Assembly: GCF_016862955.1 (NCBI RefSeq)
Contig: NZ_BONY01000036.1
Span: 1-64,000 of the forward strand
DNA: 64,000 nt
From: Rhizocola hellebori
GTDB lineage: Bacteria > Actinomycetota > Actinomycetes > Mycobacteriales > Micromonosporaceae
Direction of reading: 5' to 3'
The notes below the pieces were generated by a model. The model worked only from the letters and a program-made list of their open reading frames with translations, made no database searches and had not been told where the DNA came from. Of this stretch, positions 23,593 to 63,314 are shown piece after piece. The position numbers were made by a program, and so were the translations under genes. The number at the start of each line of letters is the position of its first letter. The stretch's first letter is position 1.

Positions 23593-23639
23593 GCTTTTGG
23601 TTCTCACGTCAACCGTTCGGGTAATTCAATCATGCCATG

Positions 23640-23671: not shown

Positions 23672-23674
23672 CTC

Positions 23675-24534: not shown

Positions 24535-24540
24535 CCAGGC

Positions 24541-24810: not shown

Positions 24811-24846
24811 ACCTCCACGAACCAGTTCACACGAAAGGAGACTTCG

Positions 24847-25918: not shown

Positions 25919-25921
25919 GCG

Positions 25922-27389: not shown

Positions 27390-27625
27390 GCGTGTTCGAC
27401 TCCGCGTTCGACTGGTTCGCCGCTCTGCCTGCTGAGGATCAGCTGCTGTATATCGGTGTGACGTGTTTGGTGGTGCTGGGCGGGTTTCTGGCGACCATTT
27501 TTCTGCCTGCGGTTCGTGAGGGTGAGGGCTTCGGGGAGCCCACACCGCCGTCTGCGCCTGTCGCGTCGGAGCCTGTGCCTGCTGCTCCTAGGTCGCCGTT
27601 CGCGGGGAAGCGGGTGTCCAAGTGA
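27386..27625 (+). CDS. Small membrane protein
   Basis: The GTG start at 27386 overlaps the previous stop (GTGA). The 79-residue product has a hydrophobic helix (LLYIGVTCLVVLGGFLATIFLPAV) and a Pro/Ala-rich cytoplasmic tail ending in basic residues. Function unknown. Confidence 0.6.
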   Translation: MSVFDSAFDWFAALPAEDQLLYIGVTCLVVLGGFLATIFLPAVREGEGFGEPTPPSAPVASEPVPAAPRSPFAGKRVSK

Positions 27626-28194: not shown

Positions 28195-28568
28195 GCCCGT
28201 CTACTCGTCGCGTCGCTGTGACGCTTGCCGCCGCTACGGCGCTGGCCATCGTGCTCTCCTCGCTGCTGATCGGCGGGCTGGGCGGTAACTGGCTTGCGTT
28301 TGTTGCCTTCGCCTTTGTGCTGATGGTGGCTTCGGCGATCGCGTTTGTGGTGTTGGCGTTCGGCCCGGCGGCGATGGTGGCCGCATCCGATGCGGCCGAC
28401 GACCCGATGGGCGCCCACGACTGCAACGACCCTGCCGCCTGCGAACTCGCGGCGGGCTTGGCTGATCTGGCTGTAGATGGTCGTATCGCCAGCCAGGAGG
28501 AGCGGGACTTCTTCGACCTGCTGAACGAGCAGGACCTGAACCGCGACCGGGAGAGGTGGCAGCCGTGA
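28191..28568 (+). CDS. Two-helix membrane protein
   Basis: The 125-residue protein has two adjacent membrane helices (VTLAAATALAIVLSSLLIGGL and FVAFAFVLMVASAIAFVVLAFG) and a soluble acidic tail with two cysteines (HDCNDPAACELAAGLADLAVDGRIASQEERDFF). It overlaps both neighbours by four bases. Function unknown. Confidence 0.65.
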   Translation: MSPSTRRVAVTLAAATALAIVLSSLLIGGLGGNWLAFVAFAFVLMVASAIAFVVLAFGPAAMVAASDAADDPMGAHDCNDPAACELAAGLADLAVDGRIASQEERDFFDLLNEQDLNRDRERWQP

Positions 28569-29212
28569 GGTACGAGATTCGACCGCTGGGCAATTGGGAT
28601 CAGCCCAAGACGGAACCTCGTGCAACCTCGGGGCGGTTCCGGGCAGCCTGGCAATCCACGCTCGACCTGCTCGGCCGCGAAGTCGAGCACCTCGGCGGCG
28701 AGCTGGTCGTCATTCAGATCGACGTGACCGAGGGCGAGCTGCGCCGCGATGGCATGCTTCGCGCGAACGCCCGGGTCGCCTTCCCCGGCGTGAAGGTTTC
28801 CTTCGAGTCTCGGCACGGCTCTCTCACCTACGCCACCGATGCCTACGACGCCCGCTATTACAACGACCCGCCTGGCTGGCAGGCCAATATACGGGCGATC
28901 GCGCTGGCCTTGGAGGCGTTGCGGGCAGTCGACCGCTATGGCGTGACCTCGAGCGGCGAGCAGTACCGAGGCTGGACCGCCATCAGTGTCACGACCGGCG
29001 AATTCGACATGACCCGCGCGCAGGCCGCCGACTTGCTCGCCCATCCCGGGCAAACGTCGTTCAAGCCGGTCGACGTGCTCACCGATCCCGCCGCGGCGGC
29101 GCAGGCATATCGCAACGCCGCCAAAAAGCATCACCCCGATGTGGGCGGCGATCCGGAGCTGTTCCGGCGGTTGACCGCTGCGCGCGATCTGTTGCTGGCA
29201 GGTGCCCGATGA
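28565..29212 (+). CDS. J-domain (DnaJ-like) phage protein
   Basis: The GTG start at 28565 follows GAGAGG by eight bases. The 215-residue protein ends in a short J-domain-like unit, AYRNAAKKHHPDVGGDPELFRRLTAARDLLL, with the invariant HPD at residues 190-192. The first ~170 residues are an alpha/beta domain of unknown function. J domains stimulate the ATPase of DnaK (Hsp70), so this protein may direct the host chaperone to a phage target such as the replication complex. It overlaps the next gene as ATGA. Confidence 0.82.
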   Translation: MRYEIRPLGNWDQPKTEPRATSGRFRAAWQSTLDLLGREVEHLGGELVVIQIDVTEGELRRDGMLRANARVAFPGVKVSFESRHGSLTYATDAYDARYYNDPPGWQANIRAIALALEALRAVDRYGVTSSGEQYRGWTAISVTTGEFDMTRAQAADLLAHPGQTSFKPVDVLTDPAAAAQAYRNAAKKHHPDVGGDPELFRRLTAARDLLLAGAR

Positions 29213-29538
29213 TCCTGGGCATCCTCAACCGTCTCGCCGAAGCGTCTCTGCGCAAACGTCATGTCCGCATGGTGGCGATGGTCAAGCGGATCGCCACCAA
29301 CAACCGTGCCCTGCGGATCGTCAACTCGCACCTTTCGGCGCAGGTGATCGCGAAGGAGCAGGGGATCCGCACAGTGCAGCGGCTGCTGGCCATAGAGAAG
29401 GAGATCGGCGTCGAACGTCTGGCCCAGTTGGCTGAGCGGGATGAGCAGATCGCCCGCATGGACGAGGAGCTGGTCGAGCTGTCCGGGCGGCTTCAGGACG
29501 CGGAAACACGGCTCGCCGAATGCAAGGAGTGCCTGTGA
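29209..29538 (+). CDS. Coiled-coil phage protein
   Basis: The 109-residue product starts with MILGILNRLAEASLRKRHVRMV and then forms one long charged helix (LLAIEKEIGVERLAQLAERDEQIARMDEELVELSGRLQDAETRLAE), a likely coiled coil. It overlaps the J-domain gene as ATGA. Function unknown. Confidence 0.65.
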   Translation: MILGILNRLAEASLRKRHVRMVAMVKRIATNNRALRIVNSHLSAQVIAKEQGIRTVQRLLAIEKEIGVERLAQLAERDEQIARMDEELVELSGRLQDAETRLAECKECL

Positions 29539-29759
29539 CCGCCCTCACCGAGCTCGCCCGGCAGCTCTACGCATGGGACGCCCGCATCAAGCTCCTCAAG
29601 CGCAACGAGCAGCTGGAGGCCGAGAACGCGGACCTTCGCCGGCGTCTTGAGCGGCTGATCGCCAAGGCCAACCGGCATCTGCACATCTGCCCACTCGCGC
29701 AGGCCGTAGAGGACGAAACCCGCGCCAAGCGCCACAGCGACGGATTGGGAGACGACTGA
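29535..29759 (+). CDS. Small coiled-coil phage protein
   Basis: AAGGAG at 29524-29529 and a GTGA overlap fix the start at 29535. The 74-residue product is a coiled coil with regular leucines (IKLLKRNEQLEAENADLRRRLERLIAKA) and a His/Cys-bearing tail. It may pair with the preceding coiled-coil protein. Function unknown. Confidence 0.65.
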   Translation: MTALTELARQLYAWDARIKLLKRNEQLEAENADLRRRLERLIAKANRHLHICPLAQAVEDETRAKRHSDGLGDD

Positions 29760-33830: not shown

Positions 33831-33999
33831 AGCCTTCAAGGTGCCCCGCGGTATCTGCTCCCACTGCGGCCGTGAGACGGCGTTGATGTCTGACGGCCGG
33901 GTGACGGGCAGGCATGGGCCTTGCCCGGGTGCGGGGCTGATGCCGTCGGCGCTCGTCGAGAAGAAGGTCGTGCCGATTCAAAAGGACGTGAAGCGATGA
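33820..33999 (+). CDS. Small zinc-ribbon phage protein
   Basis: A GAGGTG precedes the ATG at 33820, which lies 11 bp inside the previous gene. The 59-residue product is basic and has CSHCGRETALMSDGRVTGRHGPCPG, a small zinc-binding unit frequent in actinophages. ATGA overlap with the methyltransferase gene. Confidence 0.65.
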   Translation: MVRKAFKVPRGICSHCGRETALMSDGRVTGRHGPCPGAGLMPSALVEKKVVPIQKDVKR

Positions 34000-35417
34000 C
34001 ACTCACCTTGAGCGATTACTTCTGCGGCGCCGGCGGATCCTCGTCCGGGGCGAAGCTGGTACCTGGCGTCCAGGTCACCCACGCGTTCAATCACTGGCAG
34101 CTGGCCCTGGACACCCACGCCCTCAACCACCCCGAGGTGGACCACCAGAAAGCCGACCTGTCCAAGGCAAACCCGCGCCTGTATCCACGCACCGACATCG
34201 GCTGGTTTTCGCCGGAGTGCACCAACCACTCCCAGGCCAAAGGTAAACGCAAACACGACCGGCAGCCCGACCTGTTCGGTGAAACCCTGCCCGACGAAGC
34301 CGCCGAAAGATCCAGATCGACCATGAAGGATGTCCTGACGTTCGCGGCAGTGCACCGCTACGAGGCGGTCATCGTGGAGAACGTCGTCGAGGTCCGCGAC
34401 TGGGCGTGGTGGCCGAACTGGCTGCGCGAGCTTGAAGCGCTCGGCTACGACCACGAGATCGTCTACCTGAACTCCATGCACGCCCAGCAACTGGGCCCAG
34501 GCGCACCGCAGTCACGGGACCGCATCTACATCGTGGCGTGGCGCAAGGCCTGCCGCCGTCCGGATCTGCGCCGGTGGACACGCCCGCCCGCCTACTGCCA
34601 GCCGTGCGACCAGGTGGTCACGCCGATCCAGGCGTGGAAGGACCCGAACAAGCAGTTCGGCAAGTTCGGGCGCAGCGGCCAGTACGTGTACCGCTGCCCG
34701 AATCTGAAATGCCGCAACGCGGTGGTGAATCCCGAGTTCCTGCCCGCCGCGGCAGCGATCGACTGGTCGCTGACCGGGCAGCGCATCGGCGACCGCAGCC
34801 GGCCGCTGGCGCCCAAGACGATGGCACGGATCCGCAAGGGCCTGGCCACCTACGGCAGCCAGCTGCTGGTGCCGTGCGGTGGAACGTGGCGCGATCGAGC
34901 GGAGCCGCTGGCCAAGCCGATGGCGACCCGTACCACGGTTGAGACTGATGGCCTGCTTGTTCCGGTGGAGGGCCGTACGGGTACCAACGCCCGGCTGACC
35001 ACGGGTGTGTTCCGCGCGCAGACGGCACGGCTGCAGGATGCGCTGGTTGTTCCGCTGCGCAACAACGCCGTGGCACGGCCAGCGTCGACCGACCCGCTGA
35101 TGACTGTTGCCGCCGAGGGCAACCATCACATGATCGTCGACTACAACGGGCCGGCGAAACCGGTCACCTCGCCGCTGCCGACGCAGACCGCGGTCGAGGG
35201 CAACGGCCTGGCAAGCATCGAAATCGACCCGGACGACTGCGCCTTCCGCATGTTGGAGCCGCACGAGATTCAGGCCGCGATGGCGTTCGACCCCGGCTAC
35301 CGGCTGCTGGGCAATCGGCGTGAACGGGTGCGGCAGTTGGGTAATGCGGTCACTCCGCCGGCAGCCCGGGATCTGATCGCCGCAGTTGCCGAGGCTGTCA
35401 ACGGGACGGCGCCATGA
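33996..35417 (+). CDS. Cytosine-5 DNA methyltransferase, variant motif IV
   Basis: From the ATG at 33996 the protein has 473 residues and the motif order of C5-cytosine methyltransferases: motif I DYFCGAGGSSSG, motif IV with catalytic C75, motif VI ENV (128-130), motif VIII QSRDR (172-176) and the C-terminal RQLGNAVTPPAARDL. Motif IV reads SPEC instead of the usual PPCQ. The target-recognition region is long and includes two Cys pairs (CQPC, CPNLKC), a probable zinc finger. It should methylate or otherwise modify phage DNA for protection from restriction; no cognate nuclease is adjacent. It starts at an ATGA overlap. Confidence 0.9.
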   Translation: MTLTLSDYFCGAGGSSSGAKLVPGVQVTHAFNHWQLALDTHALNHPEVDHQKADLSKANPRLYPRTDIGWFSPECTNHSQAKGKRKHDRQPDLFGETLPDEAAERSRSTMKDVLTFAAVHRYEAVIVENVVEVRDWAWWPNWLRELEALGYDHEIVYLNSMHAQQLGPGAPQSRDRIYIVAWRKACRRPDLRRWTRPPAYCQPCDQVVTPIQAWKDPNKQFGKFGRSGQYVYRCPNLKCRNAVVNPEFLPAAAAIDWSLTGQRIGDRSRPLAPKTMARIRKGLATYGSQLLVPCGGTWRDRAEPLAKPMATRTTVETDGLLVPVEGRTGTNARLTTGVFRAQTARLQDALVVPLRNNAVARPASTDPLMTVAAEGNHHMIVDYNGPAKPVTSPLPTQTAVEGNGLASIEIDPDDCAFRMLEPHEIQAAMAFDPGYRLLGNRRERVRQLGNAVTPPAARDLIAAVAEAVNGTAP

Positions 35418-52159: not shown

Positions 52160-52342
52160 CGATTCGCACCAATGCAACGCAGAGTGATGGCATACCCGGG
52201 GGCACGGGTGCGCACATGATCGATTAAGTGGTCAGACCCCTCGCCTTTCCTCCCATTTCCACGTGGTACCTCTGACCTGCGGATTTCCCCAGACCCCCCG
52301 ATTCCGTCACGCACAGTGATACGTCTTCGAGGCGGTGACCCT
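52160..52342. other. Gene-free region before terminase, possible cos site
   Basis: No gene is supported in these 183 bp between the HNH and small terminase genes. The region has G+C-rich tracts (GACCCCCCGATT near 52296, ACCCGGGGGCACGGGT near 52194) and a CACGTG. In HNH-associated packaging systems the cos site is usually here. That use is only inferred from position. Confidence 0.3.
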
Positions 52343-52861
52343 GTGCCACGAACCAAGAAGCCAGCAGGCACAACGGTTGATCGGCGCAACGGCAGGCGTG
52401 CAGACCTTGCGGTGGTGCCAGGTGGCCGGATGGAAGCTCCGGAAGGCCTGCTGCCGGAAGTCGTGGAGCTGTGGGACGCCTACTGGCGCGATGCCGCTTC
52501 GGGCGTGCAGACGCCGGCGGACCGCGGCGTGCTGCTGCGCTGGATCACCGAATACGACCGCTATCTGCGCCTGATCGCTGAGGCGGACAAGTCGCCGCTG
52601 ACGACCGGGTCGAAGGGCCAGGACGTCGCGAACCCGCTTTACGGGCTCGCCGACCGGGCGCTTGCCGCGGCCGAGCGATGCGAGAAGCAGCTGGGCGTGG
52701 GCGCACTGCACCGGTCGAACCTCGGCATCGCGGTCATCGCCGAGCAGCGTTCGCTGGCCGACATGAATTCGCGTTACGGAGGTGCTGATGCCCCCGGCGA
52801 AAGCGCCCCCGAAGCCATCCCGGCGCAAGCCCGCTTCGACCCGCGCATCATCGAAGCCTGA
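52343..52861 (+). CDS. Phage terminase small subunit (P27-like)
   Basis: The GTG at 52343 gives the usual start PRTKKPAGTTVDRRNGRRADL. The 172-residue protein is helical (LLPEVVELWDAYWRDAA, LLRWITEYDRYLRLIAEADK, YGLADRALAAAERCEKQLG) and matches the P27 family of small terminases, which bind the packaging site and regulate the large subunit. Its 3' end overlaps the large subunit gene by 74 bp, so the two are tightly coupled. Confidence 0.88.
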   Translation: MPRTKKPAGTTVDRRNGRRADLAVVPGGRMEAPEGLLPEVVELWDAYWRDAASGVQTPADRGVLLRWITEYDRYLRLIAEADKSPLTTGSKGQDVANPLYGLADRALAAAERCEKQLGVGALHRSNLGIAVIAEQRSLADMNSRYGGADAPGESAPEAIPAQARFDPRIIEA

Positions 52862-54404
52862 CCTCGGCTGCGACTGCGGCTGGGCTCCTGTCCTTGGCGA
52901 GCTGTGGCCGTCGCACGGCGGCATAGCCTGCCAATGGATAGAAGATTGCTGTATCTGCGCAGAGGGTGACTGGTATGGCCGCCCGATGCGGCTGCGCCTT
53001 GACCAGCAGGAATTCCTCTACCGCTGGTATGAGTACTGCCCGCGGTGCGGCCGCTGGCATTTCGACGAAGGCCTGCGCGGCGCCGCGACCGGCGACGGGA
53101 AGACGGGCCTGATCGCGGCGATCGCCGTGTTGGAGTTCGCCGGCCCGCCGCAGATTGCGATTCCCTCACCGAACATCCCGATCGCTGCGGCGAGCTTCGA
53201 GCAGGCGAACCTGCTGTTCTCGGTGGCGGCGGTGATGTGCGGCGGCCGCGATAACGCGGTCAAGGAATCGCCGCTCAACGGCTTCTTTGAGGTCTATGAC
53301 ACGGAAATCAAATTCGCTGACGGGCGCCCGGGCAAGATTTTCCGGGTGGCCGCCGCGGCCGGCACGAACGAGGGCGGTCTTCCGTCGCTGTTCATTTGCG
53401 ACGAGCTGCACGAGTGGGGCGATGTCGGGTCGAACAAGGCCCGCGTGCATACGGTCATCGGCAAGTCGACGAAGAAGCGCCGCACACCGCGCGGGCCGGG
53501 CCGGATTCTGAACCTGTCGACGGCAGGTTTCGATGTGGATCACAGCCTGCTGGGCGCGATCTACAAGCTGGGCATTCAGGCACGGCGCGATCCGTCGCGG
53601 GCGCCGCGGATGCTGATGGACTGGCGCGAGGCTCCCGATGGCCTGGACTACAACAAGCGCGAGCATCGCGAGATTGCCGTGAGGGCGGCTTCGGGCGCGG
53701 CGGATGTGCTGTGGTCGACGGGTGACCGGGTCAACGACTGGGGCAAGCCGTCGATGCCGCGGCACGAGTGGATCCGCTACTACGCCAACAAGTGGGTGGA
53801 TGTAGCCGAGGAGTCCTGGCTCAAGGACCATCCGGAGGCTTGGGGCGCGTGCGAAGGCGCGTGGGTGTCGAGCCCGGCGAATCCGTTCGTGGTCGTCATC
53901 GACATGGCGCTCAAGCACGACTCGGTTGCGGTGGCGCGGCTGGAGAAGCTGCCTGACGGCCGGGTCGCGGTCACCTCCCGCATCTGGGAGGCGATGGGCG
54001 GCCGGATCGACCATCTGGACGTCTTCAACCACGTCCGCAAGGTGGCGGTGGGTTCCGGCTTCCGGGGTGTCGTGTACGACCCGAGGTTCTTCGAGGTGCC
54101 GTCGCGCACCTTGGAGGACGAGGGCATCTTGACGATCCAATTCGATCAGTCACCGCAGCGAATGAGCCCGGCCTGTGGGCTGGCTTTCCAGATGATTTTG
54201 GACGGCAAGGTCGTCCACAACGGCGACAGCCAGCAGACGGCGCACATCCAGGCCGCGGTGAAGCGTGAGCAGGAGCGCGGCTTCACCCTCTCGAAGGGCA
54301 AGTCGAAGAAGCACATCGACTTCGCGATCACCTTGTGCATGGGCGTCTGGATCCTGCATCAAGCGCCGGCACCATCCCGCGTCCCGCTCGCCGCCTGGGC
54401 CTGA
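52788..54404 (+). CDS. Phage terminase large subunit
   Basis: The large terminase is the ATP-driven DNA packaging motor and nuclease. GGAGG at 52778-52782 selects the ATG at 52788 (538 residues). The ATPase part has a Walker A-like GAATGDGKTGL (about 98-108) and Walker B SLFICDELHEW. The RNase H-like nuclease part has the three acidic positions in VVVIDMALKHDS, VVYDPRFFEV and KKHIDFAITLCM. A Cys-rich N-terminal part (CDCGWAP, CCICAEGDWYG, CPRCGRWHF) may hold zinc. All key residues are present. Confidence 0.95.
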   Translation: MPPAKAPPKPSRRKPASTRASSKPDLGCDCGWAPVLGELWPSHGGIACQWIEDCCICAEGDWYGRPMRLRLDQQEFLYRWYEYCPRCGRWHFDEGLRGAATGDGKTGLIAAIAVLEFAGPPQIAIPSPNIPIAAASFEQANLLFSVAAVMCGGRDNAVKESPLNGFFEVYDTEIKFADGRPGKIFRVAAAAGTNEGGLPSLFICDELHEWGDVGSNKARVHTVIGKSTKKRRTPRGPGRILNLSTAGFDVDHSLLGAIYKLGIQARRDPSRAPRMLMDWREAPDGLDYNKREHREIAVRAASGAADVLWSTGDRVNDWGKPSMPRHEWIRYYANKWVDVAEESWLKDHPEAWGACEGAWVSSPANPFVVVIDMALKHDSVAVARLEKLPDGRVAVTSRIWEAMGGRIDHLDVFNHVRKVAVGSGFRGVVYDPRFFEVPSRTLEDEGILTIQFDQSPQRMSPACGLAFQMILDGKVVHNGDSQQTAHIQAAVKREQERGFTLSKGKSKKHIDFAITLCMGVWILHQAPAPSRVPLAAWA

Positions 54405-54422
54405 CATCAAAGGAGGCCCACC

Positions 54423-54689
54423 ATGACCGTGCTGGACCGTGTGCCCGTGGAGGCCATCACCGCGAAGGCTCACAGTGTGCGCAAGGTGGACTGGGCGCGT
54501 GTCCGCCGCGCATTCGTCGCCCTGCTCGCCTTGCCGCTCACGTGGCTCGGCTGGACTGCTAGGGCTGTCGTTTCCGCATTGGTGACGACCAAGCGCGCCG
54601 CTTGGTTCGCAGTCACGTGGGCTTGCTCTGCGGTCGTGGTCGGCTGGGAAAGCGGCCCATCCTCGGCCCGCATGCCTGAGGGCGACTGA
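54423..54689 (+). CDS. Small membrane-type protein between terminase and portal
   Basis: The 88-residue product has AAAGGAGG just before the ATG. Two hydrophobic stretches (FVALLALPLTWLGWTARAVVSALV and AAWFAVTWACSAVVVGW) suggest a membrane hairpin. Function unknown; small genes at this place are common in actinophages. Confidence 0.6.
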   Translation: MTVLDRVPVEAITAKAHSVRKVDWARVRRAFVALLALPLTWLGWTARAVVSALVTTKRAAWFAVTWACSAVVVGWESGPSSARMPEGD

Positions 54690-54691
54690 CG

Positions 54692-56146
54692 TTGGACCTG
54701 CTCGGCAGGATCGCAGCGAAGCGCAACCAGCTGACTGGTGGTCAGCGTCCGCGTGGTGCTGCCCGTAAGTCGTTTACGGAGCCGCTGTCGTGGGCTTTGG
54801 ACGAGATGCGGCTGCCGTGGCTGGGGTCGACGCCGCTGGACGGGCGCAAAGAGGGCATCGAGAACGACTTCGAGGCCTACATCCGCCGTGCCTACAAGGC
54901 CAACGGCATCATCTTCGCCTGCATCACGACCCGCCAGCAGGTCTTTAGCCAGGCCCGCTTTCAGTGGCGCGAGTTTACCAAGGGCAGGCCTGGCGACCTG
55001 TTCGGCAACGAGGAGCTGTCGATCCTTGAGCGGCCGTGGCCATCGGGGACGACTGGCGAGCTGCTGGCACGTATGGAGGTTGTCGCGTCGCTGGCGGGCA
55101 ACTTCTACGCCACGGTGGTCGACGACGACGGGCGTTTCGGCAAAGCTGCTACAGGTGAGGGCAGGCGGATCGCCTACCTGCGGCCCGATTGGGTCACCAT
55201 CATCATCGGCTCGCCGAACGACAATCCCTACGACGCACGGGCGAAGGTCATCGGCTACGAGTTTCAGCCGCGAACCGTCACGGGCGTGCGATCGGGCCAG
55301 CCGCTGTTCTTGCTCCCGAACCAGGTCTGCGCCTATCAGCCCATTCCCGATCCGGAAGCCCGTTTCCGGGGCATGTCGTGGCTGACACCGGTCCTGCGTG
55401 AGATCCAGGCTGACAACGCCGCCACGTCCCACAAGGACGCCTTCCTCAAGAACTCGGCCCGGCCCGGCCTGGCGATCAAGATGGACAAGGACACCTCCAC
55501 CGAGGCCTTCAAGGAATTCGTGGAGATATTCAAGGCCAACCATCAGGGCTGGCAGAACCACTTCGGCACCCTGTTCCTCGCGGGCGGAGCGGACGTCACC
55601 CCGATCACGATGAACTTCCAGGAGCTTGACCTGGCCAATGTGCAGGCGAAGACCGAGAACCGTATCGCCGTGGCCGCTGGTGTTCCCGCCGCGATCCTGG
55701 GCATCTCGGAGGGCTTGCAGGGCTCGACGCTGAACGCGGGCAACTTCACCGCCGCGAAGAGGTTGTTCGCCGAAACCACGATCGCGGACCTGTGGGCGAA
55801 AGCCTGCCCGTCGCTGCAAACGTTGCTGACTCCTCCGTCGCCTGGTGCTGAGCTTTGGTATGACGCCCGCCAGATTCCGTTCCTGCGGGATGACGCAAAA
55901 GATGCGGCGTCGATCCAGCAGATGGAAGCGACGACGATCAAGTCGCTGAACGAGACGGGCTACGAACCTGACTCCGTCGTCGCGGCGGTAATTAACAAGG
56001 ACTGGCGGCTTCTCAAGCATTCGGGCAGGTTCTCGGTCCAGCTACGCGCGCCCGGTGAGGGCGAAGAGGCCGCAGGTCAGCCCACTTTGCCTGCCGCAGA
56101 TCCAAGCACCACCCTCGCCTTGCCGTCCGGCCCGGACGAGGAGTGA
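54692..56146 (+). CDS. Phage portal protein (HK97 type)
   Basis: The portal is the dodecamer at the unique head vertex through which DNA passes. The TTG start at 54692 gives 484 residues. The family pattern is clear: AYKANGIIFACITTRQQVFSQARFQWRE near residue 70, the LERPWPSGTTGELLARMEVVASLAGNFYA region, SWLTPVLREIQADNAATSHKDAFLKNSARPGL in the middle and RIAVAAGVPAAILGISEGLQGSTLNAGNF near residue 335. The C-terminal tail is Pro/Ala-rich. It comes three bases after the small membrane-type gene and three bases before the first polyprotein. Confidence 0.93.
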   Translation: MDLLGRIAAKRNQLTGGQRPRGAARKSFTEPLSWALDEMRLPWLGSTPLDGRKEGIENDFEAYIRRAYKANGIIFACITTRQQVFSQARFQWREFTKGRPGDLFGNEELSILERPWPSGTTGELLARMEVVASLAGNFYATVVDDDGRFGKAATGEGRRIAYLRPDWVTIIIGSPNDNPYDARAKVIGYEFQPRTVTGVRSGQPLFLLPNQVCAYQPIPDPEARFRGMSWLTPVLREIQADNAATSHKDAFLKNSARPGLAIKMDKDTSTEAFKEFVEIFKANHQGWQNHFGTLFLAGGADVTPITMNFQELDLANVQAKTENRIAVAAGVPAAILGISEGLQGSTLNAGNFTAAKRLFAETTIADLWAKACPSLQTLLTPPSPGAELWYDARQIPFLRDDAKDAASIQQMEATTIKSLNETGYEPDSVVAAVINKDWRLLKHSGRFSVQLRAPGEGEEAAGQPTLPAADPSTTLALPSGPDEE

Positions 56147-56149
56147 GCC

Positions 56150-58642
56150 ATGCCGGTCAAGCGCGACTACGTACGGGACAGTCAAGGACAGTTCGCTGAG
56201 ACCCCTGGTGGTAGCGCCGGCGTCTCCGCCCTCAACGCCATCGCAGGCATCGACGTCATGGACGCCGAAAAGTACGCCGACGTTTACGGCGACGTGTTGA
56301 ACGACGCGGGCGTAGACCTTGGCAACGACGGCGACGAGATGGGACTGACCGCCCGTTTCTTCGAACGCGGCGACCTGCATGTGGTCCTGGACCTGGAGGA
56401 CGGCAAGCGCCAGGTTTTCGAGGACATGGATCCGGAAGGTATGCGCCAGTTGGCGTACAACCTCGAGGATGTCCTGGCTGTCGACGAGGACGAGTTCGAG
56501 CCTGACGACCCGTACGACGATGTGGTGGCCGACGCCGACTCGGACAAGCACGGCTTCTATGTGGCCAAGAACGGTGTCGGTGACATCCGGATCCGGCCAC
56601 CGGATGCGGCCGAGGACGACTATCTGGAGATGTCGGCGGAGCAGGCGCTGGAGTTTTCCGAGGCGCTGCTGAACATCGCGGACAGCTATGAGGAGCACTT
56701 CGACGAGATCGTTGACGGCAGCGAAGACGCGAAGGCCGTCAAACATCCTGGGCACCCGGATCAGTCGGTGCACGGCAGGCGACGCAAGCCGCCAAGCATC
56801 GACATCCCAGCGGTTTCGTTGCCGCAGCCTGAGCCGGAGCAAGCTCCCACCCGCAAGCCACCAGCGCGGCCGAAACCACCCAAGCCCAAACCGCCGAAAC
56901 CCGCATCTGCCGCACGCCTGCCCGTGTATGTTCCGCCGAAGTCGCTTACTGCTGCCGAACGGGCGCGGGCAACCAAGCTGATTGAGGCGGATCCGAACAT
57001 TACTGCCACCGTCCATGAACGGCATGGGCGAATTTCCTGGTCCGGCATGCTCAGCGACGACGACGCGGCATGGCTTCAGTCGGTGCATGACCGGGAGCCC
57101 GCGTTCGTGAACCGGCTCGCCCAGACTGCACGGATCAATCGGCGGATCGGGGATGCGGCTAAGAAGGCCGGGCAAACGCCTGCCGTGTACAAAAAGGACG
57201 TTGCGGCCAGGCTCGGTGAGTTGCTTGACGGCAAGCCCGTTGCGGTGCGGGTGCGCGACGAAACCGCCCTGCGCGGCATCCTGTCAGGCGGCAGGTTCAA
57301 GACGTCGCTGGAAGGTGCAAAGCGTGCCCCGCATCTGAGCACCGATGCTGACGCTCGGCGGCTGGGCGAACAGATACTCGGCATCAGCCCGGAGACGCCG
57401 CCGGAGCTGCGGCCCGTGTATGGATACGTCGCCATCCACGGCATCGAGCCAGCTCTCAGTGAGGGCAAGAAGATCTCTGGCATCGCCCAGCGGGAGGGCC
57501 AGGAAGATGTCCTCAGCGTCTACGGCAAGGTCCAGGTGGTTCTAAAGCCCGAGGTGCGTGGCCGGTCTACGGCGACGGTGGGTGACAGTCTCGACGAGAT
57601 CGGCTGGATCAGGCCGTCGCCGCTGGACAGCCCAAGCGCTGAGTCCGTCGTCGCCCATGACCTGGAGTGGATGGACGATCCAGGTTGGACCCGCACTGGC
57701 TATGTCGAGGCGCAAGTCCACGGTGGTGTCCGGACAGAGGACATTGCGGAAGTCGTGTTTCCGGCCGATCCGCAACCGTTGACCGCGGCTGCGCTTGACG
57801 ATGCAGGAATTGCCTGGCGGGTGCTGAAACCGAACGGCAGCAAAGCGGTCAAACGCACCTACGTCCGCGACTCCCAAGGGCAGTTCGCCGAGACTCCTGG
57901 TGGCGATGCGGCTTCGGATGCATGGGCATCGCTTCGCGACCGCCAGCAGCGCGTCGAGGCATCGTCTAGCTCTCCGGTGAGGGAGTCGCGCCGTAACGGT
58001 GGCTTCATGGGCGGCACTGCGCGGGAGGTTCATGCCGATGGCACCACGACCATTCACAAGCAGCTGGAGGACGACAGGGACTCCGACGCTCTGACTGGGG
58101 TGAGGCAGGCCGATGCCGAGGAGCTGGGGTCGCTGGTGGCCAACGCGGTTGGGCTTCGCGCGCCAGCCGTTCATCGAGTCGGCCCGACAGACCTGCACAT
58201 GGAGTTGATGGACGGCAAGCACATCGAGCATTCGTCGATGTCGCCGTGGCAGCGCCCGCCACAAGAGTTGGCCGAATCCGACCAGGGGGTCTTGCTCGGC
58301 CTGCTGGACATTGTCATCGGCAACCCCGACCGGCATGCCGGGAACTATCTCGTCGGCGACGACGGAGCGATCATTCCATTGGATCACGCCCTTTCCTTTG
58401 GTAAGCACGGCAGTGCAGGCCTGGGCGGCGGTTTCAGCGGCCCGTTCATGAACGACGCCAGAAACGACTGGCCGGAAAAGATCGACATATCCCCCGAGGA
58501 CATGGACCTGATCCGGGAGCGTTTGGACGGGATTAAAGGCGACTTCGAACGCCTGGGGCGAACTGACTGGTGGGACCAGATGATTGAGAACCTGGACACC
58601 ATCGCCGAGCGCGCCTCCGGTACGAGGCGGCGGGTCGCATGA
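56150..58642 (+). CDS. Modular head-associated protein with kinase-like domain
   Basis: This 830-residue protein occupies a place where phages usually have one minor head protein. It starts with the motif KRDYVRDSQGQFAETPGG (4-21). An acidic domain (22-195), a KHPGHPDQSVHGRR signature, a Pro/Lys-rich linker and an unknown alpha/beta domain (about 265-560; RPVYGYV at 421, YVEAQVHGGV at 518) follow. The motif recurs at 568-585. The last module (about 617-830) looks like a PI3K/HipA-type kinase: HADGTTTIHKQ with K637, the catalytic loop N725-PDRHAGN732 and the metal-binding LDHALSF with D745. The ATG stands three bases after the portal stop and it overlaps the next gene by four bases. I infer capsid targeting and possible delivery into the new host; the substrate is unknown. 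Confidence 0.75.
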   Translation: MPVKRDYVRDSQGQFAETPGGSAGVSALNAIAGIDVMDAEKYADVYGDVLNDAGVDLGNDGDEMGLTARFFERGDLHVVLDLEDGKRQVFEDMDPEGMRQLAYNLEDVLAVDEDEFEPDDPYDDVVADADSDKHGFYVAKNGVGDIRIRPPDAAEDDYLEMSAEQALEFSEALLNIADSYEEHFDEIVDGSEDAKAVKHPGHPDQSVHGRRRKPPSIDIPAVSLPQPEPEQAPTRKPPARPKPPKPKPPKPASAARLPVYVPPKSLTAAERARATKLIEADPNITATVHERHGRISWSGMLSDDDAAWLQSVHDREPAFVNRLAQTARINRRIGDAAKKAGQTPAVYKKDVAARLGELLDGKPVAVRVRDETALRGILSGGRFKTSLEGAKRAPHLSTDADARRLGEQILGISPETPPELRPVYGYVAIHGIEPALSEGKKISGIAQREGQEDVLSVYGKVQVVLKPEVRGRSTATVGDSLDEIGWIRPSPLDSPSAESVVAHDLEWMDDPGWTRTGYVEAQVHGGVRTEDIAEVVFPADPQPLTAAALDDAGIAWRVLKPNGSKAVKRTYVRDSQGQFAETPGGDAASDAWASLRDRQQRVEASSSSPVRESRRNGGFMGGTAREVHADGTTTIHKQLEDDRDSDALTGVRQADAEELGSLVANAVGLRAPAVHRVGPTDLHMELMDGKHIEHSSMSPWQRPPQELAESDQGVLLGLLDIVIGNPDRHAGNYLVGDDGAIIPLDHALSFGKHGSAGLGGGFSGPFMNDARNDWPEKIDISPEDMDLIRERLDGIKGDFERLGRTDWWDQMIENLDTIAERASGTRRRVA
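56159..56212 (+). repeat. Motif copy 1: KRDYVRDSQGQFAETPGG
   Basis: Encodes residues 4-21 of the 830-aa protein, directly at its N-terminus. Same 18-residue motif as the three copies at 57.85, 58.86 and 59.78 kb. Confidence 0.9.
57851..57904 (+). repeat. Motif copy 2: KRTYVRDSQGQFAETPGG
   Basis: Encodes residues 568-585 of the 830-aa protein, at the border between the middle domain and the kinase-like domain. Confidence 0.9.
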
Positions 58643-61600
58643 GGCGCGAACTTCTGGGCATCCAGGCCGATCGCGGCCATGGCGGCTACGTGGAGTTTGT
58701 TGACGGCGTTGGAACCTATGCAGGGGCAACAGCCCAAGTCTTCGCCGCGCTTCGAAAGATCGTCGGAGACGACAAGCTCGCCAGTGGACTCATCGACCGC
58801 GGTTGGTCGAACGGTTACCTCTACTTGGGTCCAGCCACGGACGCCAAGTCCCTCAAGCGCACCTACGTCCGTGACGGCGAGGGACAGTTCGCCGACGTCC
58901 CAGGTGTAGGCAACGACGCGATCGCATTGGACAAGCTGAAGCTGGCCTCCCGGATCCAGCTCGGCGAGGGTGAGCGCCTGCTGTCGTCGCGCAAGTTCAA
59001 GGCGGGCGGAGCTGGCAGCTGGGACCTGCTTGCGGCCGAGGTCGACACACCTAACGGCCGTGAAGTGCGGCTTGGCGTCGTCAACCCGAATGACTCGAAG
59101 CGATGGGCAGGCGGAGCTGATCCCAAGCGCGATACCAGGGTGCGGGAGATCGACGCCGAGATCGAACGTCTTGAAGGTAAGGACGACGCGGACTTCACCG
59201 ACGAAGACGACGCGCGACGGGACGAGCTGCTTGAAGAGCGCGCCAGCCTAATCGGCGATGCGGACGAGGCTGGCCTCAACCGCACCGCGCTCCTTGGCCC
59301 GGCTGCTGTTGCTCAGCTAAGAGACGCCATCGCGGTGGGCCAGAAGGCGGCGAGCAAGCATTCGAGGGAAGCCGACGCCTTCTGGAGCGAACACGGCGAT
59401 GCATGGGCGGCCGAGCGCGACAGGCTCAATCAGATGACGTGGGGCCAGCTGACTGACGCCGACAAGGACAGGCTGCTTGAACTCGACGAGCTGCTCGAAG
59501 CCGCACCCGACTGGGAAGCGACGCACGCAGAGGGCGCGATTCCTGCGAGTGGTGACGGTGACCTTGTCTACAGCATTGAGGGCGGCGACTTCAATGACGA
59601 TGAGGGCTGGATTCTGCGCATCGGCGTCCGACCACGCGATGCCGATGAGAACTGGTATCCGGGCTTCAGTGACGACGCAGCGATCTTCGAGCCGAAGGAC
59701 GTCAAGGCATTGCTGGCCGGGCTTGCCGAGCTTGCCGGAGACCAAACCAAAGCCGCGACGGGCGGCCGTCTGTCCATCAAGCGAACCTACGTACGCGACG
59801 ATGAAGGTCAGTTCGCGGAGACGCCTGGCGGTGGCTTGTCCGCTTTGGACAAGCTGAAGCTGGGCAAGCTCGCACCCGACGGATTCACGGTGCGGTCTTC
59901 GAAGAAGATCACGACCGACTATGCGGACCTTGGTGTCGCTGAAGTGGGCAGCCCAGACGGTCGGCAGTTCCGTGTAGGGCTCATCACCACCGACTCGGGC
60001 CGGTGGGACGCAGGGTTCACTGGCGAGAAGCGCAAGGACGAGCTGCGTCAGCAGATCGCACAGCTGCAGGCGCTGCTCGACTCGGATGACGAGCAGCCTG
60101 ACGAGCTAGAGGAAAAGCTTGGCGAGCTGGAAAGCGAGCTGGAAGATCTCGATGCCGACCGCACCGCGATTCTGACGCCAGAAGCAATGGCGGACCTGCG
60201 CCGCCAGCTCGGCGACGCAGCAGAACTTGCTAAGGCCAACAAGGCGAAGCAGAACGCAACCGTCAAAGAGCTTGAAGCTCTCGACAGGCAACGTGACGAC
60301 ATCATTGCCCAGGTCAGCAACCCCGGTTTGGAGCGCCAGATCTCTAGCCTGTCGTACAGGCTGCGCCAGAAGCAAGGCATCATCAAGCGCCTGAGCGCCA
60401 AGCCGAACGCGCATGGCTGGAGCGACGAGGTGATCGCCGAACTTCTCGTCGAACACAGAGCCGACGCGGCAGAGCTAGAAGCTGAGCTGGTGCCCCTACT
60501 GGCCCGTCGGGCGGAAATCGTGCCGCCAGAAGCGCTGGCACGGCTGGAGGATCTGGATCGTCAGTACAACACCCTCAACGATGCCGACATCGACGACATC
60601 ATCACGTCGGCCGAAGTGCCCACGTCAAACGGAGGGCGCGTTCTCACTGAAGTGTGGGGCTCCGACGACGAGGACTCGGACTGGGTAACCGCGCGGCTAT
60701 ACGTGCTGGGCCCAGGCGAGACGACTCACGACGCGGACAACAGCGACGAGTATGCGTACCTGCGTGGCCTCAAGGGTCTGAGCAAACTGATTGCCGCCTT
60801 CGATGGCGGGGACGTCAAGGCAGCTGCGGGCCGCCACTCCATCAAGCGATCCTCGACTGGGGAAACCATGCAACTCAAAAGCTTCCAGCCCGAGGTGAAG
60901 GCCGTCGGCCGAAACGGCGACACGGGTACCGCCACCATCGCCATCGCCACCCTCGGTGTCGTGGACAAAGACGGTGACGTTACCCAACCAGGCTTCTTTG
61001 GCGAACAGCATGCCCAGATGGTGCCCGCACACGACTGGAACCACGTTCCCATCGGCAAAGGCCGCGTCTACGAGAAGGGCAACCAGGCCCTTTTCGACGT
61101 GACGTTCAACCTGAAGATCCCGGCCGCCAAGGACTGGTACGAGGCCATCAAGTTCGACAAAGAGAACCCGCCGTCGCTGCAGGAATTTTCCTACGGCTAT
61201 CACGTCCACGACGGCGGTTCCAAGCAAGGCAACTTCAAGGGCCGACAGGTCCGCTACCTCACGCCACGCCCCGACGGTCAGCCGGGCGGCAAAGTCTTCG
61301 AAGTCTCGCCCGTCCTGCTCGGCGCAGGGGAAGGAACCGGAACCGTGGATGTGAAATCCCTCGCCCGCGAGCGCATCGCCGCACGCAAAGCCCGGACGGG
61401 CGCGCTCGGCCTGTACGCCGGAGCGGTCGCACCGCACGAAACCGCCACCGTCGCCCGCTCCTGGGACGGCGTCAAAACGGTGGCAGGCCTACCCGACGAC
61501 GCCCTGCCCTCGCACCTGCGCACCGTCTACGCGTGGGTCGACCCGGCAGGCGACCCCGAGCTGAAGGCCTCCTACAAGTTCCCGCACCACCACGGCGTCT

Positions 61601-62058
61601 CCGGGCCTGCGAACATCCGCGCCTGCCTCGCCGGAATAGCCGTCCTCAACGGAGCCACCGGCGGCGTCGACCTCACTGACGCCGACCGCAAATCCGTCTA
61701 CGACCACCTGGCCGGTCACCTGCGTGACGCGGACCGGGAGCCGCCGAACCTGCGTACAGACCTCGGCGTAGCAAGTGGCAAGAACCTGCGTTTCGGCGAT
61801 GAGGCGGCCAACGTCCTCGCCGGCGTCGCAGGGCTGATCGACCGCGCATCGGACGTCATGGCGCTCCGGCAGCGTAAGGGCAAAGGCCTGACCGCCAACA
61901 CCGCCGACCTCCTTAGCTGGGTCCGCGATGAATGCAAGCGGCTGGACTCTCTGCTCTCGCAACCCATCGAGGCCGACGACGAACCAAGCACCCACGTGAC
62001 CGATGAAGAGATCGCGTCCGTGGTGCTGGCTGCCGTCGCCAGGCTCAACGACAACTGA
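58639..62058 (+). CDS. Modular protein ending in HK97-type prohead protease
   Basis: This 1139-residue protein has a small N-terminal domain (1-70), motif copy 3 (73-89), a first module of about 290 residues, motif copy 4 (381-398) and a second module that resembles the first (both begin ALDKLKL and end in a LAGL/LSKL helix). A coiled coil lies inside the second. A degenerate motif (KRSSTGET, 736-743) follows. The last part is the prohead protease of the S78 type: AHDWNHVPIGKG with catalytic His798, EFSYGYHV with Ser851 and FEVSPVLLGAG. A C-terminal YKFPHHHGVSGPANIRACLAGIAVLNGA domain is common in such phage proteases. Ordinary proteases of this class have about 200-400 residues and begin near residue 744 here. 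It would mature the capsid and may also cut itself and its neighbour. Confidence 0.85.
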   Translation: MRRELLGIQADRGHGGYVEFVDGVGTYAGATAQVFAALRKIVGDDKLASGLIDRGWSNGYLYLGPATDAKSLKRTYVRDGEGQFADVPGVGNDAIALDKLKLASRIQLGEGERLLSSRKFKAGGAGSWDLLAAEVDTPNGREVRLGVVNPNDSKRWAGGADPKRDTRVREIDAEIERLEGKDDADFTDEDDARRDELLEERASLIGDADEAGLNRTALLGPAAVAQLRDAIAVGQKAASKHSREADAFWSEHGDAWAAERDRLNQMTWGQLTDADKDRLLELDELLEAAPDWEATHAEGAIPASGDGDLVYSIEGGDFNDDEGWILRIGVRPRDADENWYPGFSDDAAIFEPKDVKALLAGLAELAGDQTKAATGGRLSIKRTYVRDDEGQFAETPGGGLSALDKLKLGKLAPDGFTVRSSKKITTDYADLGVAEVGSPDGRQFRVGLITTDSGRWDAGFTGEKRKDELRQQIAQLQALLDSDDEQPDELEEKLGELESELEDLDADRTAILTPEAMADLRRQLGDAAELAKANKAKQNATVKELEALDRQRDDIIAQVSNPGLERQISSLSYRLRQKQGIIKRLSAKPNAHGWSDEVIAELLVEHRADAAELEAELVPLLARRAEIVPPEALARLEDLDRQYNTLNDADIDDIITSAEVPTSNGGRVLTEVWGSDDEDSDWVTARLYVLGPGETTHDADNSDEYAYLRGLKGLSKLIAAFDGGDVKAAAGRHSIKRSSTGETMQLKSFQPEVKAVGRNGDTGTATIAIATLGVVDKDGDVTQPGFFGEQHAQMVPAHDWNHVPIGKGRVYEKGNQALFDVTFNLKIPAAKDWYEAIKFDKENPPSLQEFSYGYHVHDGGSKQGNFKGRQVRYLTPRPDGQPGGKVFEVSPVLLGAGEGTGTVDVKSLARERIAARKARTGALGLYAGAVAPHETATVARSWDGVKTVAGLPDDALPSHLRTVYAWVDPAGDPELKASYKFPHHHGVSGPANIRACLAGIAVLNGATGGVDLTDADRKSVYDHLAGHLRDADREPPNLRTDLGVASGKNLRFGDEAANVLAGVAGLIDRASDVMALRQRKGKGLTANTADLLSWVRDECKRLDSLLSQPIEADDEPSTHVTDEEIASVVLAAVARLNDN
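58855..58905 (+). repeat. Motif copy 3: KRTYVRDGEGQFADVPG
   Basis: Encodes residues 73-89 of the 1139-aa protein; one residue shorter at the end than the other copies and with DVP for ETP. Confidence 0.88.
59779..59832 (+). repeat. Motif copy 4: KRTYVRDDEGQFAETPGG
   Basis: Encodes residues 381-398 of the 1139-aa protein, between the two related modules. Confidence 0.9.
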
Positions 62059-62075
62059 GAGGGCACACGAAAGCC

Positions 62076-63314
62076 ATGACCACCGACACGCTCGAATTCC
62101 CGGCCCTGAAGGAAGCGCAGGGCAAACTCGACGCCAAGCGCAAGAGCCTGGCCGACCTGCTCGCCGAGGCAGGCCCCGACTACGACATGACGAAGGTGAA
62201 GTCCATCCAGGGCGACACCCACGCCAAGGTCGCCGAGATCGCGAAGATGAACGCCGAGATCGACGAGGCGAAGGCGGCGGTCACGAACCTGGTGACGCTG
62301 CACAAGGCGGCCCAGAACAGCCGCGACGACAGCGGCTCGCGTGAGGGCGGCGCGGATTCCGACATGGACACCCGCGGCCGCAAGGGCTTCGGCCAGCTCG
62401 TGATGGGCTCTGAGGCCATCAAGGGCTACAAGGCCGGTTCCGGTAGTGGTCCTGTCGCCCGCATCGACGTGGGTTTGAAGACCCTCTTCGAGACTGGCGC
62501 AGGCTGGGACCCGGAGGATCTGCGCACTGGCCGGGTGGAGATGTACCCGACCCGTCCCGCGCCTCGGGTGATCGACGCGTTCCCGCAGACGACCACCACG
62601 ATGTCGACTGTCCTCTACATGGAGGAGACGACGTTCACCAACAACGCGGCCGAGACCTCCGAGGGCGCGGCCTACGGTGAGGCGCAGCTGGCGCTGACCG
62701 AGCGCAGCTCCGAGGTCCGCAAGGTCGCGGTGTTCCTGCCTGTCACTGACGAGCAGTTCGAGGACGAGCCGCGCGCCCGCTCCTATGTGGAGAACCGCCT
62801 TCCGTTCATGCTCAAGCAGCGCCTCGACCTGCAACTGCTCACCGGTAACGGCACCTCGCCGAACCTGCGCGGCACTGAGAACGTGTCGGGCATCAACACC
62901 CAGGCACTGGGCGTCGACCCGCTGGCGGACGCGCTGTACAAGGCGATGCGGGCGGTCCGGGAGACCGGCTTCGCCGAGCCGAGCCACGTGTTTATCCGCC
63001 CGTCCAAGTGGGAGCAGGTCCGCCTCGCGCGTACCGCTGACGGCATCTACATCTGGGGCCACCCGTCGATGCCCGGCCCGATGACGATCTGGGGCGTGCC
63101 GGTCGTCGAGACCACGGCGGTCACCTCCACCAAGGCGGTTCTGGGCGACTACACCAACTTCTCCGAGGTTTCGGTGCGCCGCGGAATCGACATCCAGATC
63201 TCCAACAGTCACGGCTCCTTCTTCATTGAGGGCAAGCTGGCGATCCGCGCCGATGTTCGGTGCGCGGCAATCCACTACCGGCCGACCGCATTCGCCGTCG
63301 TGACCGGCCTCTGA
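62076..63314 (+). CDS. Major capsid protein (HK97 fold)
   Basis: The 412-residue protein has an N-terminal coiled-coil delta domain (ALKEAQGKLDAKRKSLADLLAEAG, HAKVAEIAKMNAEIDEAKAAVTNLV), removed by the prohead protease in relatives, probably near residue 100. The mature HK97 fold follows: TTTTMSTVLYMEETTFTNNAAETSEGAAYGEAQL (E-loop region), RKVAVFLPVTDEQFEDEP, RLDLQLLTGNGTSPNLRG (A-domain region) and VHFIRPSKW-like FIRPSKWEQVRL. It ends with a typical P-domain IEGKLAIRADVRCAAIHYRPTAF. The gene lies 17 bp after the protease gene and is followed by a strong terminator. Confidence 0.95.
   Translation: MTTDTLEFPALKEAQGKLDAKRKSLADLLAEAGPDYDMTKVKSIQGDTHAKVAEIAKMNAEIDEAKAAVTNLVTLHKAAQNSRDDSGSREGGADSDMDTRGRKGFGQLVMGSEAIKGYKAGSGSGPVARIDVGLKTLFETGAGWDPEDLRTGRVEMYPTRPAPRVIDAFPQTTTTMSTVLYMEETTFTNNAAETSEGAAYGEAQLALTERSSEVRKVAVFLPVTDEQFEDEPRARSYVENRLPFMLKQRLDLQLLTGNGTSPNLRGTENVSGINTQALGVDPLADALYKAMRAVRETGFAEPSHVFIRPSKWEQVRLARTADGIYIWGHPSMPGPMTIWGVPVVETTAVTSTKAVLGDYTNFSEVSVRRGIDIQISNSHGSFFIEGKLAIRADVRCAAIHYRPTAFAVVTGL

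What the first reader, a model, noticed from the sequence alone, without database searches (positions are those of the whole stretch)
56150..62058. Two modular proteins with a repeated 18-residue motif next to the prohead protease
KR(T/D)YVRDxxGQFAETPGG occurs four times (56159, 57851, 58855, 59779), always at a module border, in two adjacent genes whose last module is the HK97-type prohead protease. A degenerate fifth copy (KRSSTGET) stands just before the protease. A motif kept between unrelated modules in two proteins must be recognised by something: a capsid-targeting tag or a cleavage site are the simplest ideas. This would let the phage load several enzymes into its head, release them with its own protease and inject them with the DNA.
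Basis: partly seen in the sequence, partly recalled or inferred. Interest (0 to 1): 0.92.

Follow-up and report, generated by a model that had tools for sequence, protein, structure and literature searches.

The report
Tag joining phage heads to effectors
Many unrelated bacterial viruses place the same short peptide tag between parts of their shell and enzymes they probably inject into the host cell; this prophage carries four copies, and what the tag does is still untested.

Summary
The four motif copies are real and differ at 4-8 synonymous codons per pair. Corrections: only protein B ends in the head-maturation protease, A ends in a kinase-like module; B's two large modules are homologous (31% identity), with a predicted PUR/Whirly-like fold (PURA Z 10.4); the "fifth copy" lacks the core.

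The core RDxxG[KRQ][FW] recurs in IMG/VR as YVRDxxGQFAE, RRDxxGRFAEMGGG and [FW]xExxHPRDxxGKF. A residue-swapped control found 1 stretch against at least 120. In 255 occurrences the flanking segments form 61 (before) and 90 (after) clusters. In all 46 ORFs where the tag is fused to a portal or MuF domain, that domain precedes the first tag. Pfam matches behind the tag are mostly effector enzymes. A second tag class, GKHDQSxHG, sits in the same kind of slot; A carries a variant.

Best reading: a virion-loading tag working like the T4 and P1 capsid-targeting sequences; proteolytic release is the main rival. Function is inferred. Ten library searches, one for literal strings, showed no description of the tag.

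The parts
52316..52861 (+). terminase small subunit (context)
   Evidence: PF05119 E 2.4e-6; phrog_83 E 1.5e-8
52782..54404 (+). terminase large subunit (context)
   Evidence: phrog_9 E 7.5e-54
54692..56146 (+). portal protein, directly upstream of protein A
   Evidence: PF04860 E 1e-33
56150..58642 (+). protein A, 830 aa: tag 1 - small module - second-class tag - DUF3626/ART-like module - tag 2 - kinase-like module
56159..56212 (+). tag copy 1, KRDYVRDSQGQFAETPGG, from residue 4 of protein A
56741..56785 (+). variant of the second-class tag, KHPGHPDQSVHGRRR
   Evidence: class surveyed with a stricter pattern
56960..57847 (+). DUF3626-type module; a relative is annotated capsid maturation protease and ADP-ribosyltransferase (Tierra gp9); fold not confirmed
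   Evidence: phrog_8314 E 1.4e-13; tblastn E 1e-10; alignment; AF2 model unusable, pLDDT 40.8
57851..57904 (+). tag copy 2, KRTYVRDSQGQFAETPGG
57905..58639 (+). kinase-like module (GNPDRHAGNYL...IPLDHA)
   Evidence: PF00454 E 9.7e-6, 26.1 bits, just below its cut-off of 27.1; invariant D, DR, N, D in six sequences chosen by similarity
58639..62058 (+). protein B, 1139 aa: N-terminal piece - tag 3 - module B1 - tag 4 - module B2 - head-maturation protease - C-terminal domain
58855..58908 (+). tag copy 3, KRTYVRDGEGQFADVPGV
58909..59778 (+). module B1, predicted PUR/Whirly-like fold
   Evidence: AF2 pLDDT 78.1; PURA Foldseek prob 0.99, E 9.8e-3; VIA-align Z 10.4, rmsd 3.9, 138 aligned
59779..59832 (+). 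tag copy 4, KRTYVRDDEGQFAETPGG
59833..60843 (+). module B2, homologous to B1 (31% identity)
60844..60867 (+). KRSSTGET: module end without the tag core; not counted as a copy
60856..61398 (+). head-maturation protease domain (residues 740-920 of B)
   Evidence: phrog_80 E 7.9e-8; Aussie capsid maturation protease 39.6%
62076..63314 (+). major capsid protein (context)
   Evidence: PF05065 E 1.7e-29

Best explanation
Proteins A and B are head-operon multidomain (polyvalent-type) proteins of a prophage. The motif is a short junction tag that marks each cargo module as something to be carried in the virion. Shown by sequence: the tag lies between a head carrier (portal, MuF, protease) and effector-type modules in many unrelated phages, or near the N-terminus of proteins that are often encoded beside head genes; carriers and cargo are exchanged while the tag is kept. 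Inferred: a component of the prohead (scaffold/core, portal or inner shell) binds the tag, so that its cargo is enclosed and later ejected with the DNA, as the capsid-targeting sequences of T4 internal proteins and P1 DarB do. Inferred: fusion of tagged genes to each other or to the portal produced the internal copies. Inferred for this phage: the cargo is an ART-like enzyme, a kinase-like enzyme and PUR-like nucleic-acid-binding modules, and B also brings the maturation protease.
For: Non-random: 89 of 89 loci of the first scan and 80 of 80 inspected HPRD loci have the tag in an open frame; a P/R-swapped control finds 1 stretch against at least 120. In the HPRD subset 116 of 121 non-redundant cases have F or W seven residues before RD, a place the pattern left free; glycine holds 49-68 of 121 at +10 to +12. 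Swapping: 61 clusters before and 90 after the tag; one cluster, represented by a portal, precedes 15 cargo clusters. Before the tag: four portal Pfam families and MuF; portal, minor head and maturation-protease PHROGs. After it, where Pfam recognises anything: ARTs, PBECR nucleases, RelA/SpoT, GNAT, zeta toxin, topoisomerase IB, NUDIX, pyrophosphatase, SAM lyase, 2'-5' RNA ligase, kinase. Of 142 tag ORFs, 53 are fused to a portal/MuF (46) or DUF2213 (7) domain; 29 more have such a gene nearest, all on the same strand, 27 within 3 kb. In an earlier set (loci and some phage records) 75 of 109 tag ORFs have a portal upstream on the same strand and 2 are portals. N-terminal tags favour loading: 48 of 231 ORFs, not counting 8 cut by a stretch end, have the first tag within 70 aa of the frame start; tag 1 starts at residue 4 of A. 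Precedents, passages read: T-even internal proteins share only a CTS (PMC3012670); 30 residues of P1 DarB suffice to target a reporter (PMC9024508).
Against: No virion proteomics or binding data for a tagged protein were found. Tags on effectors already fused to a portal (L079/L087, L162, L196) would not be needed for loading. Head-carried effectors exist without the tag: the Yersinia phage fHe-Yen8-01 ART, annotated phage particle associated, has none; nor do the related proteins of Dolphis, Forza, D29, pMLP1, Tierra and SP-15. Most relatives of the L196 portal lack such an extension: of 1463 phage records with a match only 1 covers 80% of it. 60 of 142 tag ORFs have no recognised head gene in the stretch held, and of 49 unfused ORFs with an N-terminal tag only 19 do. 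The receptor would have to be shared by unrelated head types, and none is identified.
Confidence: 0.5

Rival explanations
1. The tag is a processing site: the prohead protease or another protease cuts at or near it, releasing each effector from its carrier (portal, MuF or polyprotein) inside the head.
For: It lies between carrier and effector, where release would be needed; a portal-fused effector could hardly be ejected uncut. B carries its own maturation protease. Glycines often follow the tag. In T4, gp21 removes the CTS after loading, so tag and cut site can be one element (PMC5694885, passages). 13 of 25 large tag-bearing records do have an S78 or DUF2213 match.
Against: Tags also sit near N-termini (A residue 4; 48 of 231 ORFs) with little to remove. 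None of 8 protease relatives carries the motif credibly. Protease types differ: phrog_80-like here, ClpP in L172, DUF2213 in 12, S78 in 1 and neither in 12 of 25 records, which may be fragments. The residue after FA is E, D, Y, F or H among relatives, so no fixed scissile residue.
Confidence: 0.25
2. The tag is a passive connector: a turn plus a flexible linker that tolerates module insertion, kept because it is a good domain border, with no partner.
For: Glycine-rich tail; strong module shuffling; RDxxG is a plausible turn.
Against: A passive linker should drift, yet the aromatic seven residues before RD, which the HPRD pattern left free, is kept in 116 of 121 cases. A copy at residue 4 connects nothing. 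A second, different sequence class fills the same kind of slot.
Confidence: 0.15
3. The tag acts in the recipient or in the tail: it starts unfolding or threading through the tube, or is read by a host protein after ejection.
For: It often precedes each module separately, as expected if every module must be threaded or released on arrival; it is shared by phages with different portals.
Against: Nothing tested here supports a host or tail partner; hosts of the tagged viral contigs were not determined.
Confidence: 0.1

Closest known systems
Polyvalent proteins of phages and conjugative elements (Iyer et al. 2017, PMC5512222; passages seen)
   Same: Multidomain proteins, many encoded in phages with a portal-terminase packaging system, with ART, PBECR, 2H and related modules; assemblin-like peptidase at the C-terminus, as in B.
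   Different: No shared short tag in the passages seen; 'linker', 'short linear' and 'conserved motif' occur 0 times in the main text; 12 of 32 places were shown. PUR-like or kinase modules were not looked up there.
T4 capsid-targeting sequence (PMC3012670, PMC5694885; passages seen)
   Same: Short peptide shared by otherwise diverse head-carried proteins; stated role in getting each protein into the prohead.
   Different: T4's is N-terminal, 10-20 residues, and removed by gp21. Here the tag is also internal, repeated, and shared by phages with different portal families. Sequence similarity to the T4 CTS was not tested.
P1 DarB capsid-targeting sequence (PMC9024508; passages seen)
   Same: Short N-terminal stretch that loads a 250 kDa anti-restriction protein.
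   Different: [quoted passage not shown] here a consensus spans many phages.
MuF polymorphic toxins (Jamet et al. 2017, PMC5576092; start of abstract and a term search only)
   Same: Effector joined behind a head protein; L151 is MuF - tag - ADPrib_exo_Tox.
   Different: No MuF match in the window's genome. 'Motif', 'linker', 'cleavage' and 'junction' occur 0 times in that paper's main text.
PUR-alpha / Whirly nucleic-acid-binding proteins
   Same: Predicted fold of module B1 (Z 10.4 to PURA, 7.7 to WHY1).
   Different: Sequence identity about 12%; phage context; binding untested.

Membership tests
Polyvalent proteins (phage type) | Several distinct domains in one polypeptide | tested here: met
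   A: small module, DUF3626-type, kinase-like; B: two homologous modules, protease, C-terminal domain
Polyvalent proteins (phage type) | Encoded with portal and terminase | tested here: met
   TerS-TerL-portal-A-B-capsid on one strand
Polyvalent proteins (phage type) | Packaged in the virion and injected | not testable with these tools
   needs virion mass spectrometry
HK97-type head-maturation protease (C-terminus of B) | Sequence match to head-maturation protease families | tested here: met
   phrog_80 E 7.9e-8; Aussie protease 39.6% identity, E 2e-20
HK97-type head-maturation protease (C-terminus of B) | Match to Pfam Peptidase_S78 | tested here: inconclusive
   not reported in the Pfam scan of the whole protein at E up to 1
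T4-type capsid-targeting sequence | Short sequence shared by otherwise unrelated head-carried proteins | tested here: inconclusive
   sharing among unrelated proteins met; that they are head-carried is inferred
T4-type capsid-targeting sequence | N-terminal position | tested here: not met
   also internal and repeated; hence 'works like', not 'is'
T4-type capsid-targeting sequence | Sufficient for packaging a reporter; removed by prohead protease | not testable with these tools
   bench assay needed
MuF polymorphic toxins | N-terminal MuF domain | tested here: not met
   no PF04233 match in G000 nor in A or B
PUR/Whirly/PC4-like fold (module B1) | Two beta4-alpha repeats | tested here: met
   predicted only: AF2 model pLDDT 78.1; Foldseek prob 0.99 but E 9.8e-3; Z 10.4, rmsd 3.9, 138 aligned
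PUR/Whirly/PC4-like fold (module B1) | Nucleic-acid binding | not testable with these tools
   not assayed
ADP-ribosyltransferase (middle of A) | ART fold | tested here: inconclusive
   AF2 model pLDDT 40.8, not usable; relation to a protein annotated as ART only
Atypical kinase (end of A) | Catalytic D, DR(H)..N and metal-type D | tested here: met
   invariant in six sequences chosen by similarity; PF00454 E 9.7e-6 but below its cut-off

The most novel reading that the evidence does not exclude
Tailed phages with unrelated heads share a general virion-loading code made of at least two interchangeable short tags, [FW]xExxHPRDxxG[KRQ]FxxGGG with its YVRD and RRD variants, and KHLPGKHDQSSHG. The tags are recognised by a common head component and let phages swap warheads freely onto portal, MuF or protease carriers.
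Probability: 0.38. Interest if true: 0.93.

Novelty: new variant of a known kind. Interest (0 to 1): 0.78.

Why it matters
How effector proteins are selected for the heads of phages other than T4 and P1 is largely open, as far as I know. A shared tag would make it directly testable with one reporter fusion. It would also give a simple sequence handle for finding injected phage effectors, many of unknown function, and a possible peptide for loading chosen proteins into phage particles.

Tried and rejected
Rejected: DNA-level repeat or recent duplication of the tag. Chance: swapped-residue control, backwards control in the own genome. A tag inherent to MuF proteins: 10 MuF loci from 9 genomes of the phylum carry none (four of the ten score under the family's cut-off, and one motif-like string in L186 lies in an opposite-strand frame). 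A tag inherent to DUF3626: 13 loci from 7 genomes, mostly two per gene, carry none. A tag that follows the protease: 0 of 8 IMG/VR protease relatives.

Led nowhere: relatives of A in IMG/VR, none. tblastn with a 29-residue consensus, no match. LPD3 in 296 genomes, nothing rang there or in the controls, so no conclusion. B-module profile in 394 genomes of the class, only the own genome. Fold of the ART-like module, unusable model, not searched. The T4 stretch fetched did not show the internal-protein genes; T4 tag letters were not compared. In Dolphis a hypothetical protein (L320:915-1535) holds a tag-like RKRDAKGKFT string near its end; not followed.

Corrected: one search reused a stale profile for one seed; its counts are replaced. 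The 63 portal/MuF profile hits fall on 46 ORFs, because some profiles overlap. Of the 56 N-terminal tags, 8 are in frames cut by a stretch end. The test by the N-terminal domain of L044 returned 11 loci, but 8 lie on contigs already brought in by the motif pattern (compare); only L314, L315 and L318 are new, and all three keep RRDRKGRFA-MGGG with Y for E. The patterns and the filter fix R, D, G and, except for some W, F, so conservation there is by selection. Clusters are single-linkage blastp groups and may split or merge true families; many of the 90 cargo representatives have no Pfam match (44 families in all, 25 shown).

Reading: paper statements rest on abstracts or passages. Searches behind 'no description seen': of which only 116 used literal tag strings; subscription papers and preprints are mostly outside that library. 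Calling the YVRDPWGSFAE protein of 30 GTDB stretches chromosomal and unrelated rests on its repeated occurrence in bacterial contigs and on recall, not on an annotation.


Full report
Locus. The first part of the window is bacterial chromosome (apolipoprotein N-acyltransferase, alcohol dehydrogenase, acyl-CoA dehydrogenase, the last ending at 23343). The later part holds prophage head genes on the plus strand: terminase small subunit, terminase large subunit, portal, protein A, protein B, major capsid protein. Three bases separate the portal stop codon from the start of A, and B overlaps A by 4 bases.

The observation. Their DNA differs at many synonymous sites. A also holds a second short motif, KHPGHPDQSVHGRRR, behind the same KAVK lead-in as copy 2.

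What the modules are. B1 gives a fair AlphaFold model (pLDDT 78.1). Foldseek's best hits are the PUR-alpha repeats I-II (probability 0.99, E 9.8e-3). VIA-align gives Z 10.4 over 138 residues (rmsd 3.9) to PURA and 7.7 to Whirly. This suggests a nucleic-acid-binding fold; binding is untested. A's middle module belongs to the DUF3626 type (phrog_8314 E 1.4e-13) and is related to Tierra gp9, annotated capsid maturation protease and ADP-ribosyltransferase. Its fold could not be modelled. A's last module has the residues of an atypical kinase, with Pfam support just under the cut-off.

The motif outside this prophage. An exact pattern for RDxxG[KRQHNS]FAE(M/T)(P/G)GG found 89 stretches in IMG/VR, and all 89 carry the motif in an open frame. 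Many are giant proteins behind a portal like that of phage DSL-LC01. Over the loci and some phage records, 75 of 109 motif ORFs in 104 loci have a portal upstream on the same strand, 2 are the portal itself, and for 32 no portal was recognised. The stricter YVRD form gave 16 stretches, two of them already seen, including portal - tag - module (L079, L087, L162, L163), MuF - tag - ADP-ribosyltransferase (L151), and chains of several tagged modules (L150, L154).

The HPRD form. The same pattern with P and R exchanged found 1 stretch. A place outside the pattern is conserved too: F or W seven residues before RD in 116 of 121 non-redundant HPRD cases; glycine at +10, +11 and +12 in 60, 68 and 49 of 121.

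Modularity. In 255 occurrences (231 ORFs, 217 loci) the segments before the tag fall into 61 clusters (44 singletons) and those after it into 90 (62 singletons). Fourteen cargo clusters sit behind more than one carrier cluster, and 11 carrier clusters precede more than one cargo cluster. The most varied carrier cluster, whose representative is a phrog_146 portal, precedes 15 cargo clusters. Pfam on representatives: before the tag, four portal families, MuF and DUF2213, besides effector modules of multi-tag proteins. After it, ARTs, PBECR1-3, RelA/SpoT, GNAT, zeta toxin, topoisomerase IB, NUDIX, InPase, SAM lyase, 2'-5' RNA ligase, kinase and LPD3, but also one DUF2213 and one Peptidase_S78_2 (25 of 44 families shown, and many of the 90 representatives match nothing). 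PHROGs agrees for the carriers.

Position. Of 142 tag ORFs in the YVRD and HPRD sets plus the window stretch, 53 contain a portal or MuF (46) or DUF2213 (7) domain. In all 46 the portal/MuF domain lies before the first tag; DUF2213 lies before in 1, after in 4 and spanning in 2. A further 29 have such a gene nearest on the same strand (27 within 3 kb), none on the opposite strand; for 60 none was recognised in the stretch held. The B module also occurs with other proteases: ClpP-type in L172, phrog_3894 in L171, phrog_80-like here.

A second tag. GKHDQSxHG was found in 24 stretches, all in frame. With L173 added, 7 of 25 loci have it in the same ORF as a recognised portal or MuF domain, each time behind that domain (L173, L345, L347, L348, L350, L352, L357); 4 more have such a gene elsewhere in the stretch (L343, L344, L358, L359); for 14 none was recognised. 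Window A (in a variant form) and L158 carry both classes.

Results against the reading. Protease relatives lack the tag (0 of 8). Of the six other family genomes matched by B, two have the tag, one the second class, three neither. Isolated phages with related effectors mostly lack it: Tierra and SP-15, pMLP1, D29, fHe-Yen8-01, Forza, and the related proteins of Dolphis; DSL-LC01 has it twice. Most relatives of the L196 portal lack the tagged extension: 1 of 1463 phage records covers 80% of the fusion. In three relatives and one DSL-LC01 copy the E of FAE is Y or F. In GTDB genomes the YVRD pattern gave 37 stretches: 30 one unrelated protein with S, one frame with R (L127), three with S or N, three not in frame; their neighbours were not annotated.

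Interpretation. A short, conserved peptide that joins swappable cargo to unrelated head carriers, and also stands near the N-terminus of unfused cargo, is most simply a loading tag. T-even internal proteins share only a capsid-targeting sequence (PMC3012670, passage), and 30 residues of P1 DarB suffice to load a reporter (PMC9024508, passage). The T4 sequence is then removed by proteolysis (PMC5694885, passage), so loading and cutting may both apply here. Cutting alone explains portal-fused cargo better; loading explains N-terminal tags better. The present data cannot separate them.

Novelty. Head-carried multidomain effectors, their fusion to portal and MuF, and a C-terminal assemblin-like peptidase are known (PMC5512222, PMC9503650, passages). 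I saw no description of the shared tag in ten library searches, one of them for literal strings.

Noticed in passing
window 56741-56785; L338-L360, L158, L173: Second short tag class (KHLPGKHDQSSHG) in the same kind of slot behind portal/MuF domains.
   Followed up: partly
L172:6967-8949 (-): Tag variant QRRDSDGKW, then a B-type module, then a ClpP-type protease: the same module joined to an unrelated protease.
   Followed up: partly
L150:1710-4226 (+): Three tags, each a different variant, in one protein with YHGT-type modules, and a fourth tag in the next ORF.
   Followed up: partly
L056:1-7911: Three proteins of one phage share the tag plus a conserved segment of about 60 residues behind it (GGGFxF...GIY...KAI), attached to different modules.
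   Followed up: no
L154, L171, L173: 2'-5' RNA ligase / 2H-type domain in the tag-bearing proteins, possibly acting on host nucleotide signals.
   Followed up: no
L013:7880-12417 (record 52800-62669): Giant 3289-residue protein of Actinomycetia phage DSL-LC01 with the tag about 208 residues in, near a tagged DUF3626 protein behind the portal.
   Followed up: partly
window about 23350-29700: Change from chromosomal genes to prophage genes somewhere in this stretch; no tRNA found in the window, attachment site not determined.
   Followed up: no
window 33921-35417: C-5 cytosine DNA methylase gene (PF00145, E 2.2e-16).
   Followed up: no
L320:915-1535 (+), Pseudomonas phage Dolphis: Tag-like RKRDAKGKFT string near the end of a hypothetical protein.
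   Followed up: no
30 of 37 GTDB stretches L113-L149: YVRDPWGSFAEY, a conserved stretch of an unrelated protein, matches the loose DNA pattern; a warning for motif scans that allow S at that place.
   Followed up: partly
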